A program made the translations under genes and the position numbers. From Candidatus Binataceae bacterium (lineage in GTDB: Bacteria > Desulfobacterota > Binatia > Binatales > Binataceae), in contig JASHZA010000148.1 in the NCBI GenBank assembly GCA_030042765.1, forward strand, positions 1-7,652: a stretch of DNA of 7,652 nt, written 5' to 3'. Under the pieces are notes generated by a model. That model was not told the DNA's origin. It saw only the letters and a list, made by a program, of their open reading frames with translations, and ran no database searches. Positions 1-5,028 of this stretch are shown here, one piece after another (positions within the stretch are counted from its first letter, which is position 1; every line of letters begins with the position of its first letter).

Positions 1-858
<858 letters not shown>

Positions 859-912
859 GTAGCTGCGGCGGCGCACCGCGGTCATCAGAGGATCACAGGA
901 CGGATTCACAGG

Positions 913-1419
913 ATGCCGACCAAATACGTGGCGACCCTGGAGGGCGTTGAGCACGAGCTCGAAGTCGAAGAGATTGCTACAAACGCGCTCAGAATAAAGT
1001 TCGGGCAGAACGCGTTCGATGTCGATGTGCGACGAGTTGGACGCACCTCGTTTTCGGTCCTGGTCGGCAACCGCTCCTTCGACCTCGACGTAATCGCCGA
1101 CGGCGACGATCTGCTTGTGGCCTCGCGCGGTGGTTCGACCCGTGTCACGCTGATCGATACGGCCCGCCGTGGGCACGGCGCAGTCGCGCGTCCGCAAGCC
1201 GGTGGCAGGGCCGAGATGCGGGCGATGATGCCCGGACGGGTAGTCAACGTGCTGGTCAGCGTCGGCGACGAGGTCGAGCATCTTCAGGGCGTGCTGGTGG
1301 TCGAGGCTATGAAAATGGAGAACGAGATCAAATCGCCCAAGGCGGGGAAGGTAGCCGAGATCAAGGTGACGCCTGGCCAGACCGTGGAGAAGGGCGAACT
1401 GCTGGCCGTAATCGAATAA
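913..1419 (+). CDS. Biotin carboxyl carrier protein of the acyl-CoA carboxylase
   Basis: This 168-residue carrier moves carboxybiotin between the biotin carboxylase encoded just upstream and an unseen carboxyltransferase. The C-terminal biotinyl domain (about 102-168) holds the EAMKMEN biotinylation motif; Lys134 is the acceptor, 34 residues from the C-terminus as is usual. The N-terminal 80 or so residues are beta-rich (repeated short strands such as FDVDVRR and SFDLDVIADGDD). They resemble the linker/BT-like region that joins the two domains in fused propionyl-CoA carboxylase alpha chains. A flexible Arg/Gly/Ala stretch (84-100) separates the two parts. The gap to the upstream gene is 54 bases and the mutase gene starts 15 bases downstream, so the three are probably co-transcribed. 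The Shine-Dalgarno sequence is weak (CACAGG directly before the ATG). Pyruvate- or acetyl-CoA-type carboxylases cannot be excluded from this subunit alone. Confidence 0.92.
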   Translation: MPTKYVATLEGVEHELEVEEIATNALRIKFGQNAFDVDVRRVGRTSFSVLVGNRSFDLDVIADGDDLLVASRGGSTRVTLIDTARRGHGAVARPQAGGRAEMRAMMPGRVVNVLVSVGDEVEHLQGVLVVEAMKMENEIKSPKAGKVAEIKVTPGQTVEKGELLAVIE

Positions 1420-1434
1420 CTGAGGCGAGTAATC

Positions 1435-3108
1435 ATGGCCGACAACGAACGCACGATCGCCGGCGCGCGCAAGGAATGGGATGAGAAGCGGGTCGCGCCC
1501 ACGCTCAAGCGAGGGCCCGAGCGCCGCGAACGTTTTGCCACCGGATCCGGAATCGAGGTCAAGCGCGAATACGACCCCGACGATCTCGAAGGCTTCGATT
1601 ATCTCACCGATCTGGGCTTTCCGGGCGAGTTCCCTTTCACCCGCGGCGTGCAGCCCACCATGTACCGCGGGCGCCTGTGGACGATGCGCCAGTACGCCGG
1701 TTTCGGCGATGCCGAGGAATCCAATCGCCGATACCGCTACCTGTTTGCCAACGGACAGACCGGCCTTTCGGTGGCCTTCGACCTCCCGACGCAGATGGGG
1801 CGCGACGCCGACCATCCGCTCGCCCGTGGCGAAGTCGGACGCGTCGGCGTGGCCATCGGATCGCTCGCGGATATGGAAACGCTGCTGGCGGAGTTGCCGC
1901 TGGACCGGATTTCCACTTCGATGACGATCAACGCCACCGCGTCGATCCTGCTGGCGCTCTACCTGGTGGTGGCTGAGCGGCGCTCGATCGCCTGGAACAA
2001 GCTGACCGGCACGATCCAGAACGATCTGCTCAAGGAATATATTGCGCGTGGGACCTATATCTATCCGCCGCGCGAATCGATGCGCATAATCACCGACATC
2101 TTCGAGTTCGCGAGCCGCGAAGTTCCGAACTGGAACACGATTTCGATCTCCGGCTACCACATCCGCGAGGCTGGCTCGACCGCCGCGCAGGAACTCGCCT
2201 TCACCCTCGCCGACGGGATCGCATACGTCGAGGCCGCCGTAAAGGCGGGGCTTCGGGTCGATGACTTCGCAAGCCGGCTCTCGTTTTTCTTCAACGTCCA
2301 CAACAATTTCTTCGAGGAGGTAGCCAAATTCCGCGCTGCTCGCCGCCTGTGGGCGCGGATCATGAAAGAGCGTTTCAAGGCCAAAGACGAACGCTCGATG
2401 ATGATGCGGTTCCATGCCCAGACCGCAGGCTCGACCCTCACCGCGCAGCAGGTCGACAACAACGTGGTTCGAGTGACGTTGCAGGCGCTGGCGGCCGTGC
2501 TCGGCGGCGCCCAGTCGTTGCACACGAATTCCAGGGACGAGGCCCTCGCGCTGCCGACCGAAGGTTCCGCGCTGCTGGCGTTGCGCACCCAGCAGGTGAT
2601 CGCATACGAGTCCGACGTAACCGATACCGTCGACCCCCTGGCCGGCTCCTACTATGTCGAAACGCTGACGCGCGAGATCGAGGGGAAGGCACTGGAGTTT
2701 ATCGGCAAGATTGACGACTTCGGCGGCGCTGTCGCGGCGATCGAGCGCGGCTATATGCAGCGCGAAATCAACAACTCCGCGTTTCTTTACCAGCGCGAGA
2801 TTGAAAAAAAGGACCGGATTATCGTAGGAGTCAACGACTTCACCTCCGATCACGATCACCCTGGCGATATTCTCAAGGTGAATCCGGCGACCGAAGAGAA
2901 GCAGCGTGCCCGGCTGGCCCGGATTCGGGCGGAACGCAACCAGGCCGCCGCGCAGCAGGCGCTCGCGCGAGTCGAGTCGAGCGCGCGCGACGGGAGCAAC
3001 CTGATGCCGTCGATTATTGACGCAGTGCGAAACTTTGCGACTTTGGGTGAAATCGCCGACGCGATGCGCCGGGTGTTCGGTGAATACAAGCCGGCGAATC
3101 AGTTATAA
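1435..3108 (+). CDS. Methylmalonyl-CoA mutase, catalytic (large) subunit without B12-binding domain
   Basis: This enzyme interconverts (R)-methylmalonyl-CoA and succinyl-CoA using adenosylcobalamin. The 557-residue protein covers the substrate-binding TIM barrel and ends where single-chain mutases continue into the cobalamin domain, so it belongs to the split type that needs a separate small B12 subunit of about 130-140 residues. Motifs: TRGVQPTMY (69-77), RQYAGF (85-90), [12 protein letters not shown] (191-202), ISISGYH (236-242) and QSLHTNS. Compared from memory with Propionibacterium mutase, all residues shift by two: Tyr87 (Tyr89), Gln195 (Gln197), Arg205 (Arg207), Tyr241 (Tyr243) and His242 (His244). 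Keeping both Tyr89 and Arg207 favours methylmalonyl-CoA over isobutyryl-CoA mutase (Phe and Gln there) or 2-hydroxyisobutyryl-CoA mutase (Ile at the Tyr). Ethylmalonyl-CoA mutase is not ruled out. The ATG follows a GAGG sequence 9 bases upstream. No MeaB-type GTPase, epimerase or B12 subunit is in the window. Confidence 0.94.
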
Positions 3109-3134
3109 AGGACCTTCGCCGCGCGCGGGTACTT

Positions 3135-3160
3135 TTTTCCAGCACCGCGGTCGTGGAAAA
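3135..3160. promoter_or_regulatory. 26-base interrupted dyad upstream of the arginine decarboxylase gene
   Basis: The 115-base gap between the mutase and the decarboxylase contains TTTTCCA, two bases, the self-complementary core ACCGCGGT, two bases, then TGGAAAA. Eleven of thirteen positions per half are symmetric; only the two-base spacers mismatch. The centre lies between 3147 and 3148, about 76 bases before the decarboxylase ATG. As RNA it would give only a 7-bp A/U-rich stem with a wide loop and no following U-run on the plus strand, so a protein-binding operator fits better than a terminator. No regulator is known from the sequence. Confidence 0.35.
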
Positions 3161-3223
3161 TATGAAGATAGATCCGCGCAAGGTGCGTGGCGGGGCAGCG
3201 TCAAGCAGGAGACAAGGAATTAA

Positions 3224-3787
3224 ATGGGGCCGTTTCCGAAGGGGGTTTTCCTCACCAAGGGCGTCGGCAAGCATCGGGAAAAGCTCAACTCTTTCGAGCT
3301 TTCGCTGCGATCCGCCCAAATTGCGGAGTTTAACCTGGTTCGCGTGAAATCGATTTTCCCGCCCAACTGCAAGTTGATCACGCCGCAGGAAGGCCTGCGC
3401 TATTTGTCGCCCGGCCAGATCGTTTTCGCCGTGATGAGCGACAATGCGACCGACGAACCCCATCGGCTGATCGCCGCCTCGGTCGGCGTTGCCATTCCCG
3501 CCAATCCGAGCCAGTACGGCTACCTGTCAGAGCATCACAGCTTCGGCGAGACTGAGCAGAAGTCCGGCGACTATGCCGAGGATCTGGCCGCGATGATGCT
3601 CGCCACGATCCTGGGGGTGGACTTCGATCCCAACGCCAGCTACGACGAGCGCAAAGACATCTGGCGGGTGTCCGACAAGATCGTAACGACCCGCAACGTC
3701 ACGCAGTCGGCGATCGGCGACCGCGACGGCCTGTGGACCTCGGTGGTGGCGGCTGCCGTTTTCGTCGATTTGCCCAACGGCAAGTAG
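3224..3787 (+). CDS. pdaD: Pyruvoyl-dependent arginine decarboxylase proenzyme
   Basis: This enzyme converts arginine to agmatine and CO2, the entry to polyamine synthesis, with a pyruvoyl group made by self-cleavage instead of PLP. The 187-residue protein matches the bacterial PvlArgDC family along its whole length: [13 protein letters not shown] at the N-terminus, [19 protein letters not shown] at the processing site, [24 protein letters not shown], and a C-terminal [12 protein letters not shown]. Ser43 (codon 3350-3352) aligns with Ser53 of the Methanocaldococcus jannaschii enzyme, which becomes the pyruvoyl group. Asn37 and Glu103 align with its active-site Asn47 and Glu109. The residue before the cleavage serine is Lys42, where that enzyme has Ser. 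The start is supported by AGGAG (3207-3211) and AAGGA (3214-3218), the latter 5 bases from the ATG, and by the family's usual N-terminus. It is 115 bases after the mutase, so it may have its own promoter. Confidence 0.92.
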
Positions 3788-3800
3788 GTGCATCTGCCGT

Positions 3801-3829
3801 TTGAGCGGCGGCGCCGGCAGCGCTACGAT
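3801..3829 (+). promoter_or_regulatory. Candidate sigma70-type promoter for a leaderless selW-like transcript
   Basis: TTGAGC (3801-3806) and TACGAT (3824-3829) are separated by exactly 17 bases; each matches four of six positions of the housekeeping consensus. A start site seven bases after the -10 box would fall on the A of the ATG at 3836. No Shine-Dalgarno sequence precedes that ATG, which agrees with a leaderless message. Such hexamers do occur by chance, so this is a proposal. Confidence 0.35.
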
Positions 3830-3835
3830 CAAGCC

Positions 3836-4069
3836 ATGGCTACAGAGATTCTTTACTGCTCTGCCTGAGGCTATCGGCCGCGCGCGGCCAGTCTGGCCGC
3901 GTCACTTAAATCCCGCTTTGGCGAGGATGCGCAAATCAAGGCGGGGAAAACCGGGCAGTTCGACGTCGTCGCCGACGGCAAACTGATTTTCTCCAAGGCC
4001 ACAGCCGGACGCTTTCCGCTCGAGGGTGAGGTCGAGGATGCCTTCGCCAAGCTCGCAAAGGGAAAGTAA
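3836..4069 (+). CDS. SelW-like selenoprotein (SelT/SelW/SelH, Rdx family), UGA at 3866-3868 read as selenocysteine
   Basis: The frame from the ATG at 3836 runs to TAA at 4067-4069 with a single internal TGA at codon 11, giving 77 residues. Around the TGA it reads ILYCSA-U-GYRPRAASL, which is the Cys-x-x-Sec motif (Cys8, Sec11) of the SelW thioredoxin-like fold after the first beta strand. The rest keeps the family pattern: SLKSRFG, GQFDVVADGKLIFSK (40-54) and the hallmark GRFPLEGEV (58-66). A hairpin at 3883-3901 fits a bacterial SECIS. Members are small redox proteins thought to act on thiols; the substrate is unknown. The protein is near the short end of the family. It lies 48 bases after pdaD on the same strand and its stop is 8 bases from the hemQ stop on the other strand. 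A Cys-to-stop pseudogene is the alternative, but the frame is intact after the TGA. No Shine-Dalgarno is visible. Translation terminated at the TGA would give only 10 residues. Confidence 0.88.
3883..3901 (+). promoter_or_regulatory. Putative bacterial SECIS hairpin in the selW-like gene
   Basis: CGCGGCCA (3883-3890) pairs perfectly with TGGCCGCG (3894-3901), an 8-bp stem closing a GTC loop, extendable by one G-U pair. If the top A-U pair opens, the loop is AGUCU. The loop guanine comes 22 bases after the UGA. Known bacterial SECIS elements lie just downstream of the UGA, with roughly 16-37 bases to the apical loop and a G among the first loop bases. The E. coli fdhF element has a similar CAGGUCUG top. 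SelB would bind here to deliver Sec-tRNA. A nearby 14-base palindrome (3876-3889) could form competing pairs. Confidence 0.65.
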
Positions 4070-4077
4070 GGCCGAAC

Positions 4078-4896
4078 TTACGACTGTTCCGGCGTCGTGA
4101 AGAGACGGTCGATTTCCGACGGCGCCAGCCGGATACCCACGTAAAACGGGCCGAATTCGGCGTAGCGCGCGCTCGATTCGTCGAAGCGCATCTCGTAGAC
4201 CAGCTTCTTGAACACGATCGGATCGTCGGCAAAGAGATCGACGCCCCATTCCCAGTCGTCGAATCCGACCGATCCCGAAATAACCTGCGTCACCCGCCCC
4301 GCGTAGCGCCGCCCGATCATCCCGTGGTCGCGCATCAGGCGATGACGCTCTTCGATCGGCAACATATACCAGTTATCGGCGCCCTGGCGGCGTTTGTTCA
4401 TCGGGTAGAAGCAGACGTAACGGCTCGCCGGAATTTTCGGAAAGAGCCGCGCGGCGAGCTTCTCGCGCTGGCCGGCGAGGTCGGCCTCAACCGCTTGTCG
4501 CCATTCCGGCGAATGCGGCTTCACCCCTTTACCCGCCAGCTCCGCATGGAGGTTCACGGTCGACTCGTAGAGCCCGATTTCGACCACGGACAGATATGAA
4601 CTTGACGGCTCCAAGAATTCGCTCAGCGCAAGCTGGCTCACTTCGAGCTCGGCCGCAGCGATCTGATCGAGCCCGCGCCGGAAGTGAATCACGACAAGGT
4701 CGCCTTTGTGCCCTATCTGTGTAAAGAGCGCGCTCTCGCCGTCCTCGCGCCGCCCCATCGCCTCGAACGCCGCCGTGGCGCGCTCGATCGCCGCCGCACG
4801 CCGTGTTGTGGGCCGCGCGTTCCATTGCGGCCGGCGGATCCGAAAGAACTGATGCAGTACCGCGAAGCCCTCGAGCGTGTTGGGCGCGGCGGGCAT
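4078..4896 (-). CDS. hemQ: Coproheme decarboxylase HemQ (chlorite dismutase superfamily)
   Basis: HemQ oxidatively decarboxylates coproheme III to heme b with H2O2, the last step of the coproporphyrin-dependent heme route. From the chosen start the protein is 272 residues. The second half carries the family core: YPMNKRR, NWYMLP, DHGMIGRRYAGRV, DDWEWGVDLFADDP and an EMRFDE segment. Numbered from this start, Tyr164, Met166, Lys168, Trp176, His191 and Gln204 keep the exact spacing of Listeria HemQ Tyr147, Met149, Lys151, Trp159, His174 and Gln187, i.e. the catalytic tyrosine, heme-propionate contacts and proximal histidine. True chlorite dismutases lack this set. The start at 4896 has AAGGG seven to eight bases upstream, and the protein then opens with the usual APNTLEG; an in-frame ATG at 4932 would add 12 residues but has no Shine-Dalgarno. 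It is downstream of cbiA on the same strand, 132 bases away, and convergent with the selW-like gene. Confidence 0.95.
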   Translation of the reverse strand: MPAAPNTLEGFAVLHQFFRIRRPQWNARPTTRRAAAIERATAAFEAMGRREDGESALFTQIGHKGDLVVIHFRRGLDQIAAAELEVSQLALSEFLEPSSSYLSVVEIGLYESTVNLHAELAGKGVKPHSPEWRQAVEADLAGQREKLAARLFPKIPASRYVCFYPMNKRRQGADNWYMLPIEERHRLMRDHGMIGRRYAGRVTQVISGSVGFDDWEWGVDLFADDPIVFKKLVYEMRFDESSARYAEFGPFYVGIRLAPSEIDRLFTTPEQS

Positions 4897-4961
4897 TTCG
4901 GTACCCTTGTGCGAAGCGCGGTCGTCTTTCATCGCTGCGAATATCGTGTGCTCGATAAGAC

Positions 4962-4989
4962 TCTATATTTTCCGAGACTCACGCGCCAA
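4962..4989 (-). promoter_or_regulatory. Candidate sigma70-type promoter for hemQ
   Basis: On the minus strand, TTGGCG (4989-4984) and TATAGA (4967-4962) are 16 bases apart in the gap between cbiA and hemQ; each matches four of six consensus positions. Transcription would begin near 4955, leaving a leader of about 59 bases before the hemQ start at 4896. The local AT-richness against a GC-rich background supports a promoter. It would let hemQ be expressed apart from cbiA and rodA. Confidence 0.35.
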
Positions 4990-5028
4990 GCGTGATGTTG
5001 CCGGCCGTTTTCGTCGCCGAGCTGTGCC

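What the first reader, a model, noticed from the sequence alone, without database searches (positions are those of the whole stretch)
3836..4069. Hidden SelW-like selenoprotein split by an in-frame UGA
Reading through TGA at 3866-3868 joins ten residues ending in ILYCSA to GYRPRAASL and a complete Rdx-family body with GQFDVVADG, LIFSK and GRFPLEGEV. The UGA is exactly at the second redox position of the CxxC/CxxU motif. Standard gene callers stop at the UGA, so this stretch would appear as an intergenic gap of about 290 bases. It predicts that the genome carries selA, selB, selC and selD.
Basis: partly seen in the sequence, partly recalled or inferred. Interest (0 to 1): 0.87.

Follow-up and report, generated by a model that had tools for sequence, protein, structure and literature searches.

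The report
Hidden selenoprotein W-like redox gene
A bacterial genome of the Candidatus Binataceae group carries a small selenoprotein-W-type gene whose internal UGA, normally a stop, is predicted to be read as the amino acid selenocysteine; the same UGA, followed by a matching RNA hairpin, stands in all 31 family genomes found to have the gene, and two close relatives that lack most of the selenocysteine machinery also lack this gene at its usual place.

Summary
ORF 3836-4069 has an in-frame TGA at codon 11 (3866-3868), giving CxxU at the head of a complete Rdx/SelW domain (PF10262, E 1.5e-16). Of 35 genomes of its family, 31 carry the gene and all 31 have TGA at codon 11. A bacterial SECIS hairpin (3884-3900, loop AGUCU, 21 nt after the UGA) is held by synonymous constraint in the family and by compensatory changes across phyla; six Cys forms make at most 3 of its 6 pairs. 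The genome has selA, a selD with its own in-frame TGA, and a contig-edge end of selB; tRNA-Sec was not found in this 53%-complete assembly but is in 28 of 35 family genomes. Two close relatives without selA, selB, tRNA-Sec and the selD TGA lack this gene through a clean gap of about 350 bp between conserved flanks. So: a genuine SelW-like selenoprotein gene, a new member of a known family. New here: in 20 of 30 orthologues a -35/-10 pair is locked to the ATG (-10 at -12/-13), predicting a leaderless selenoprotein mRNA.

The parts
3836..4069 (+). Rdx/SelW-like selenoprotein gene, 77 residues with U at 11
3866..3868 (+). in-frame TGA, predicted selenocysteine codon (codon 11)
   Evidence: TGA in 31 of 31 family orthologues (30, G003)
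3857..3868 (+). CxxU redox motif (C8-S9-A10-U11)
   Evidence: sequence; C8 and U11 in 30 of 30
3884..3900 (+). bSECIS hairpin: stem 3884-3889 with 3895-3900, loop AGUCU 3890-3894, 21 nt between UGA and loop
   Evidence: fold -12.0 kcal/mol for the 17-mer; RNAalifold consensus; 93.8% of pair cells kept in 84 distinct Sec sequences, 0 of 2000 shuffles as high
3801..3806 (+). -35-like hexamer TTGAGC
   Evidence: TTG 16-17 bases before the -10-like hexamer in 20 of 30 orthologues
3824..3829 (+). -10-like hexamer TACGAT, 17 nt after the -35 and 6 nt before the ATG; predicts a leaderless mRNA
   Evidence: TANNNT at -12/-13 in 21 of 30 orthologues and at no other offset from -40 to -6; ArgDC control 0 of 24
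3224..3787 (+). upstream neighbour: pyruvoyl-dependent arginine decarboxylase (PF01862)
   Evidence: found beside Rdx in 26 of 30 family loci
4078..4932 (-). downstream neighbour: chlorite dismutase family protein (PF06778; the name HemQ is recalled)
   Evidence: seen within the held DNA of 17 of 30 family loci

Best explanation
The stretch 3836-4069 is one intact gene for a SelW/Rdx-family protein with a CxxU motif, in which the in-frame UGA at codon 11 is predicted to be read as selenocysteine by SelB and tRNA-Sec guided by a bSECIS hairpin 21 bases further on. The likely product is a 77-residue thioredoxin-fold protein whose Cys8 and Sec11 would form and break a selenenyl-sulphide bond, that is, a small thiol/disulphide oxidoreductase; its substrate partner is unknown. 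Shown: the reading frame, the family, the conserved UGA, the conserved hairpin, machinery genes in the own genome and the family, and the joint absence of gene and machinery in two relatives. Inferred: that Sec is inserted in the cell, the redox chemistry, and that the mRNA starts at or next to the ATG (leaderless).
For: Family: PF10262 E 1.5e-16 over residues 4-66, both sides of the UGA. Model pLDDT 89.8; Foldseek's best hit is the SelW-related 2p0g (TM 0.87 by query length), and its 23 hits at E <= 0.001 are chains of the same eight entries that one search finds by sequence. UGA at codon 11 in 31 of 31 orthologues of the family; of 80 loci kept from the species-genome collection 76 are CxxU and 4 CxxC. 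UGA is not simply reassigned: the terminal stop of 15 of 30 orthologues is TGA. bSECIS: codon 19 is AGT in 28 of 28 Ser rows against 2 of 66 Ser codons in codons 35-66 of the same genes; the pairs joining third codon positions, columns 21-33 and 24-30, are kept in 80 and 84 of 84 distinct sequences through C-G, G-C, T-A and other standard pairs, shuffle means 40.2 and 57.3; six distinct Cys forms make only 1-3 of the 6 pairs. It fits the bSECIS constraints printed in PMC13188914 (passages): loop N-G-U-N-N with N1-N2 pairing, stem 6 bp, spacing 21 nt, window MFE -12.0. Machinery: selA, selD with TGA and a C-terminal selB piece. Joint absence: G026 and G032 have no selA match, no selB over cut-off, no tRNA-Sec (best hits 50.1 and 43.7 bits; ARAGORN names the top two hits of each as tRNA-Ser and tRNA-Leu), selD with Trp or Cys in place of the UGA, and no Rdx, with ArgDC and HemQ still in place and flanks 92.5-97.3% identical to G014 and G034 meeting where promoter and gene would be; the same-genus genomes G014 and G034 have them all.
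Against: tRNA-Sec was not found in the window's own genome and selB only as a 42-residue end, though the assembly is 53% complete. Three other Rdx-bearing family genomes (G018, G029, G033) show no tRNA-Sec (their best hits are tRNA-Ser, tRNA-Ser and tRNA-Cys), and G009 no selA; gaps in assemblies are the likely cause, not shown. The 66-bit line for tRNA-Sec is mine: Rfam's gathering score of 47 would also pass tRNA-Ser and tRNA-Leu hits such as G026's. G002 has the machinery but no Rdx between ArgDC and HemQ, so the gene is dispensable. Within the family alone the hairpin covariation does not beat shuffles (92 of 500) because three of the six pairs never vary; the case rests on the cross-phylum set, and shuffles do not allow for relatedness. 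The bare 17-base hairpin passes -7.5 kcal/mol in 58 of 84 sequences (78 of 84 with flanks), and one Cys form with flanks reaches -11.9; a G in the first two loop positions is also present in 6 of 6 Cys forms, so neither measure discriminates. No expression, proteomic or selenium evidence.
Confidence: 0.93

Rival explanations
1. The TGA is a sequencing error or the gene is a pseudogene broken by a nonsense mutation.
For: A single in-frame stop in a short ORF of a fragmented, 53%-complete assembly.
Against: The same TGA at the same codon in 31 of 31 family genomes and a CxxU TGA in 76 of 80 loci kept from the species-genome collection; protein and RNA hairpin both under constraint.
Confidence: 0.01
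2. UGA is a sense codon throughout this lineage (Trp or Gly code), so no selenium is involved.
For: Three database homologues carry Gly, Gly and Trp at the UGA position (P0002, P0034, P0035), which looks like gene calling under tables 25 and 4.
Against: 15 of 30 orthologues use TGA as terminal stop; selA, Sec-type selD, selB and tRNA-Sec (anticodon TCA) occur in the family; the one tRNA-Trp seen in the own genome's fetched loci has anticodon CCA.
Confidence: 0.01
3. The protein is a Sec-containing Rdx protein, but its job is selenium or metal handling or partner binding rather than thiol/disulphide exchange.
For: The biochemical role of bacterial SelW-like proteins is unsettled; PMC1088965 calls the function unclear (passages).
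Against: CxxU in a thioredoxin-like fold is the layout from which PMC1088965 infers a redox role; Cys8 in 30 of 30.
Confidence: 0.3
4. Rdx is translated from a read-through transcript of the upstream arginine decarboxylase gene, so the mRNA is not leaderless and the TTG...TANNNT match is not a promoter.
For: Rdx starts 48 bases after the ArgDC stop on the same strand; SD-like stretches stand before 7 of 30 orthologues, for example L018 and L023, which lack the promoter-like pair; a generic sigma-70 scan finds no site here.
Against: TANNNT lies at -12 or -13 in 21 of 30 orthologues and at no other offset from -40 to -6; 20 of the 21 have TTG 16-17 bases upstream; shuffles of the same upstream stretches give 1.6 and 0.1 on average; ArgDC orthologues show 0 of 24 and have SD-like stretches in 22 of 24.
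Confidence: 0.2

Closest known systems
Bacterial SelW-like (SELENOW-like, PF10262) selenoproteins
   Same: Rdx domain, CxxU with Sec at the second redox position, bacterial SECIS after the UGA; listed among the selenoprotein families predicted with high confidence in PMC13188914 (passages) and the most abundant family of the Sargasso Sea set in PMC1088965 (passages).
   Different: Another lineage (Candidatus Binataceae); 35 of 38 database homologues found begin after the UGA; a promoter-like pair locked to the ATG.
Solved Rdx proteins: Vibrio cholerae SelW-related 2p0g, Agrobacterium Atu0228 2fa8, Pseudomonas 2obk and 2oka, Bordetella 2ojl, Streptomyces SAV_2001 3dex, human MIEN1 2ljk, mouse SelW 2npb
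   Same: Same fold (TM 0.64-0.90 by query length) and sequence relation.
   Different: Identity 24-32%; the one bacterial chain whose alignment I printed (2oka) has CTQC, that is Cys where this has Sec.
bSECIS elements (consensus model in PMC13188914, passages)
   Same: Meets loop, stem, G-position, spacing and energy constraints.
   Different: Nothing outside the model; the loop AGUCU or AGUUU with an AGU serine codon is near-fixed in this family.
Leaderless bacterial genes with a -10 region next to the ORF (PMC3160421, PMC12340547; listing and start of abstract only)
   Same: TANNNT 6-7 bases before the ATG in 21 of 30 orthologues.
   Different: Here the gene is a selenoprotein; the start site is predicted, not mapped.

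Membership tests
SelW/Rdx family (PF10262) | Rdx domain above the Pfam gathering score | tested here: met
   60.8 bits, cut-off 22.6, residues 4-66
SelW/Rdx family (PF10262) | CxxC or CxxU between first strand and first helix | tested here: met
   C8-S-A-U11 between strand 3-7 and helix 14-28
SelW/Rdx family (PF10262) | thioredoxin-like Rdx fold | tested here: met
   predicted model, pLDDT 89.8; 23 Foldseek hits at E <= 0.001, chains of eight entries also related by sequence
Bacterial selenoprotein | in-frame UGA conserved in orthologues, Cys in others | tested here: met
   31 of 31 in the family; 76 CxxU and 4 CxxC of 80 loci
Bacterial selenoprotein | bSECIS hairpin just after the UGA | tested here: met
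Bacterial selenoprotein | selA, selB, selC, selD in the genome | tested here: inconclusive
   selA and selD present, selB as a contig-edge end, selC not found in the 53%-complete own genome; family counts of 35: selA 32, selB 32, tRNA-Sec at 66 bits or more 28, selD with TGA 33
Bacterial selenoprotein | selenium present in the protein | not testable with these tools
   needs 75Se labelling or mass spectrometry
Leaderless gene | promoter placed so that transcription starts at the start codon, no SD | tested here: inconclusive
   position-locked -35/-10 pair in 20 of 30 orthologues, window included, ArgDC control 0 of 24; but the generic scan finds no promoter and 7 of 30 have SD-like stretches
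Leaderless gene | mapped 5' end at the start codon | not testable with these tools
   needs 5'-end RNA sequencing

The most novel reading that the evidence does not exclude
This is a selenoprotein made from a leaderless mRNA: in Candidatus Binataceae a sigma-70-type promoter is fused to the start codon, so that the 5' AUG is engaged without a Shine-Dalgarno site, the recoded UGA lies only about 30 bases from the RNA's 5' end and the whole bSECIS lies within its first 65 bases. Selenocysteine insertion would then work in the first rounds of elongation on a ribosome that started by the leaderless route, and a similar layout recurs before some Rdx genes of records titled Vicinamibacterales or Acidobacteria (6 of the 10 hits among 49 genes). 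In the genus of Candidatus Binatus soli, deletion of precisely this transcription unit accompanied a recent collapse of the selenocysteine trait.
Probability: 0.6. Interest if true: 0.6.

Novelty: new member of a known kind. Interest (0 to 1): 0.45.

Why it matters
Ordinary annotation hides the active site of this protein: of 38 database homologues found, 35 begin after the UGA. Reading the gene whole adds predicted selenium-dependent redox chemistry to an uncultured group. The pair of relatives that lack both the machinery and this gene is a natural control for the prediction, and the promoter-like pair at the ATG gives a directly testable case of selenocysteine insertion on a leaderless mRNA; a search of the held papers for leaderless with selenocysteine or SECIS showed no such report among the 20 titles listed of 659.

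Tried and rejected
Rfam scan of the window at the gathering threshold gave no match; the bSECIS was found by alignment instead. tRNA-Sec search in the own genome gave six hits of 32.7-42.4 bits, which ARAGORN names as tRNA-Cys, Gly, Leu, Trp, Tyr and Arg. The generic sigma-70 scan found no promoter at 3100-5000; the promoter reading came from position-locked conservation, and its hexamers are weak by the E. coli consensus. Covariation inside the family alone was not above shuffles. Hairpin energy and the loop G as Sec/Cys discriminators were tried and are imperfect. I asked whether formate dehydrogenase is another Sec client: in 8 genomes the 4 hits over the cut-off have no TGA; one partial hit in G013 has one. 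SelU (TIGR03167) was sought to explain the selD kept in G026 and G032: no hit over the cut-off in 6 genomes. The paper search Binatota with selenocysteine gave one paper, on sponge methane cycling (listing and start of abstract); a wider search of the group's names with selenoprotein gave eight, with no occurrence of selenoprotein in any (listing). PMC12013277 held none of the five terms sought in it. No tree was built; the short domain was judged too little for one.

Rows dropped: identical 63-base stretches were collapsed (110 Sec to 84, 7 Cys to 6); L116 (second, weak Rdx-like hit of G044) gave no alignment and was left out; of 119 confirmed relatives in genome contigs the tool kept 80; the promoter count used 30 of the 31 family orthologues, with the starts of L041 and L045 moved two codons upstream by the script. 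The patterns used include one with Cys at the Sec place, a bias against Sec, not for it. In one search the start codons were chosen by script, 49 genes.

Full report
What is there. The window (G000:C292) holds, in order, the end of a biotin carboxylase (name from the sequence, recalled), a biotinyl-carrier protein, a methylmalonyl-CoA mutase, a pyruvoyl-dependent arginine decarboxylase (ArgDC, 3224-3787), the stretch of the finding, and on the other strand a chlorite dismutase family protein (4078-4932, here called HemQ, a recalled name), a CobB/CobQ-type protein and a RodA/FtsW-type protein. The 290-base gap between ArgDC and HemQ contains an ORF, 3836-4069, interrupted only by an in-frame TGA at codon 11.

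Family. With the TGA read through, the 77 residues match Pfam Rdx at 60.8 bits over residues 4-66. AlphaFold2 with a 30-row alignment gave pLDDT 89.8 and the order strand-helix-strand-strand-strand-helix-helix. The 23 Foldseek hits at E <= 0.001 are chains of eight entries (2p0g, 2fa8, 2obk, 2ojl, 3dex, 2oka, 2ljk, 2npb), best 2p0g with TM 0.87; the same eight come up by sequence, nearest MIEN1 (2ljk), E 5.3e-9.

Lineage. 

The UGA is conserved. Of 57 genomes searched (own included), 37 have a match; of the 35 in the same family 31, and each of the 31 has exactly one TGA. I read 30 of them in frame and the 31st (G003) later: TGA is codon 11 in all. In the species-genome collection 80 loci were kept of 119 relatives: 71 have TGA at the aligned residue, 5 from records with actinobacterial titles have it one codon earlier as CPxU with one extra residue behind, and 4 have Cys. 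15 of the 30 family genes end with TGA as their stop, so UGA has two meanings there. Of 38 database homologues, 35 begin after the UGA; the other three show Gly, Gly and Trp at that place, probably gene calls under another code, not checked on DNA.

The RNA element. In the window a 6-pair stem, 3884-3889 with 3895-3900, closes the loop AGUCU (the fold also pairs its first and last base), 21 bases after the UGA. In the 30 family sequences, synonymous codon choice is nearly frozen at codons 17-21: excess identity +0.34 on average over codons 17-22 (codon 22 itself is free, -0.14) against +0.03 (SD 0.10) over 58 other codons; Ser19 is AGT in 28 of 28 Ser rows while AGT is 2 of 66 Ser codons in the later part of the same genes. 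Inside the family covariation is not above shuffles (92 of 500). Across phyla it is: of 84 distinct Sec sequences 93.8% of pair cells are standard pairs and every sequence makes 5 or 6 of the 6; 0 of 2000 shuffles are as high (maximum 81.2%), with the reservation that shuffles ignore relatedness; the two pairs joining third codon positions hold in 80 and 84 of 84, through G-C, C-G, T-A and A-T forms. Sliding the partner by 1 to 3 columns gives 27-56%. All 84 have G in the first two loop positions, but so do the six distinct Cys forms, which make only 1 to 3 of the 6 pairs; one Cys form reaches -11.9 kcal/mol with flanks. The element meets the constraints printed in the review PMC13188914 (passages).

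The machinery. Own genome: selA 582.9 bits; selD 377.3 bits with one TGA; a 42-residue C-terminal match to selB at the start of the contig that also carries selD; no tRNA-Sec. Family of 35: selA over cut-off 32, selB 32, selD with TGA 33, tRNA-Sec 28. For tRNA-Sec I drew the line at 66 bits, above Rfam's gathering score of 47, because a second group of hits at about 43-51 bits consists of other tRNAs: the nine places that I fetched from G026 (two), G032 (two), G010, G014, G018, G029 and G033 are tRNA-Ser, tRNA-Leu or tRNA-Cys by ARAGORN. ARAGORN calls tRNA-SeC, anticodon TCA, at 30 of 30 fetched strong loci, 19 of them from the family.

A natural control. G026 and G032 belong to the same genus as G014 and G034. 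They have no selA match, no selB over cut-off, no tRNA-Sec, and selD with Trp (G026) or Cys (G032) where relatives have the UGA. They have no Rdx match, and at the ArgDC-HemQ locus the flanks are 92.5-97.3% identical to those of G014 and G034 but about 350 bases are missing, from just before the -35 element to about ten bases behind the Rdx stop codon. G002, in contrast, has the machinery and lacks Rdx with ArgDC and HemQ adjacent, and G010 lacks both Rdx and HemQ matches, so its locus may be unassembled. So the gene can be absent without loss of the machinery; absence of the machinery with the gene kept was not seen in these 35.

Start of the gene. TANNNT begins at -12 (15 cases) or -13 (6) in 21 of 30 orthologues and at no other offset between -40 and -6; 20 of the 21 have TTG 16-17 bases before it; shuffles give 1.6 and 0.1 on average; 7 of 30 have SD-like stretches. 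In the window this is TTGAGC-17-TACGAT-6-ATG. ArgDC orthologues in the same loci show 0 of 24 and SD-like stretches in 22 of 24. That predicts an mRNA starting at or next to the ATG. The generic consensus scan does not report it. Outside the family 10 of 49 Sec Rdx genes have TANNNT at -11 to -14, six of them from records titled Vicinamibacterales or Acidobacteria; 15 of 49 have SD-like stretches, one of these with both. The start site is not mapped.

How it likely works. Transcription would start at the ATG; after ten codons the UGA would be met by SelB with Sec-tRNA held at the hairpin; the product would be a thioredoxin-fold protein with a Cys8-Sec11 pair acting as a thiol/selenol exchange centre. 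The last step is inferred from family knowledge: PMC1088965 calls the function of SelW-like proteins unclear, infers a redox role from CxxU and cites interaction with glutathione (passages).

Novelty. SelW-like selenoproteins of bacteria are known (PMC1088965, PMC1794560, PMC13188914; passages), so this is a new member. The leaderless layout and the joint absence in the genus of Candidatus Binatus soli were not found in the searches made (listings only), which cover open-licence papers.

Noticed in passing
L106 and L107 (G026, G032): selD is kept as an open frame with Trp (G026) or Cys (G032) where relatives have the Sec UGA, although selA, selB, tRNA-Sec and SelU (TIGR03167, over cut-off) were not found; it looks like a decaying or repurposed remnant.
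   Followed up: partly
Rdx orthologues such as L018, L020, L023, L028, L039, L040: 13 of 30 family orthologues have 95 or more residues, with a C-terminal tail that often ends in a basic stretch such as RLTDKFRN; the window's copy lacks it.
   Followed up: no
G011: Two tRNA-Sec genes on one contig and two selB genes over the cut-off in one genome.
   Followed up: no
P0002, P0034, P0035: Database homologues with Gly or Trp at the Sec position; probably UGA translated under code 25 or 4 by automated gene calling.
   Followed up: partly
L150, L155-L158, L161, L163, L174, L175: Rdx genes of records titled Vicinamibacterales, Vicinamibacteria or Acidobacteria show TAACAT- or TACGAT-like hexamers 12-15 bases before the ATG.
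   Followed up: partly
L013:154-183: Upstream of the own selD lies TTGAGC-18-TAGACT, resembling the pair before Rdx, 15 bases before the assigned ATG.
   Followed up: no
window 1-2859, minus strand: A 953-codon open frame antisense to the carboxylase and mutase genes, probably a by-product of high GC.
   Followed up: no
G013:C24:20568-21341: A partial formate-dehydrogenase-like match with one in-frame TGA, a possible further selenoprotein.
   Followed up: no
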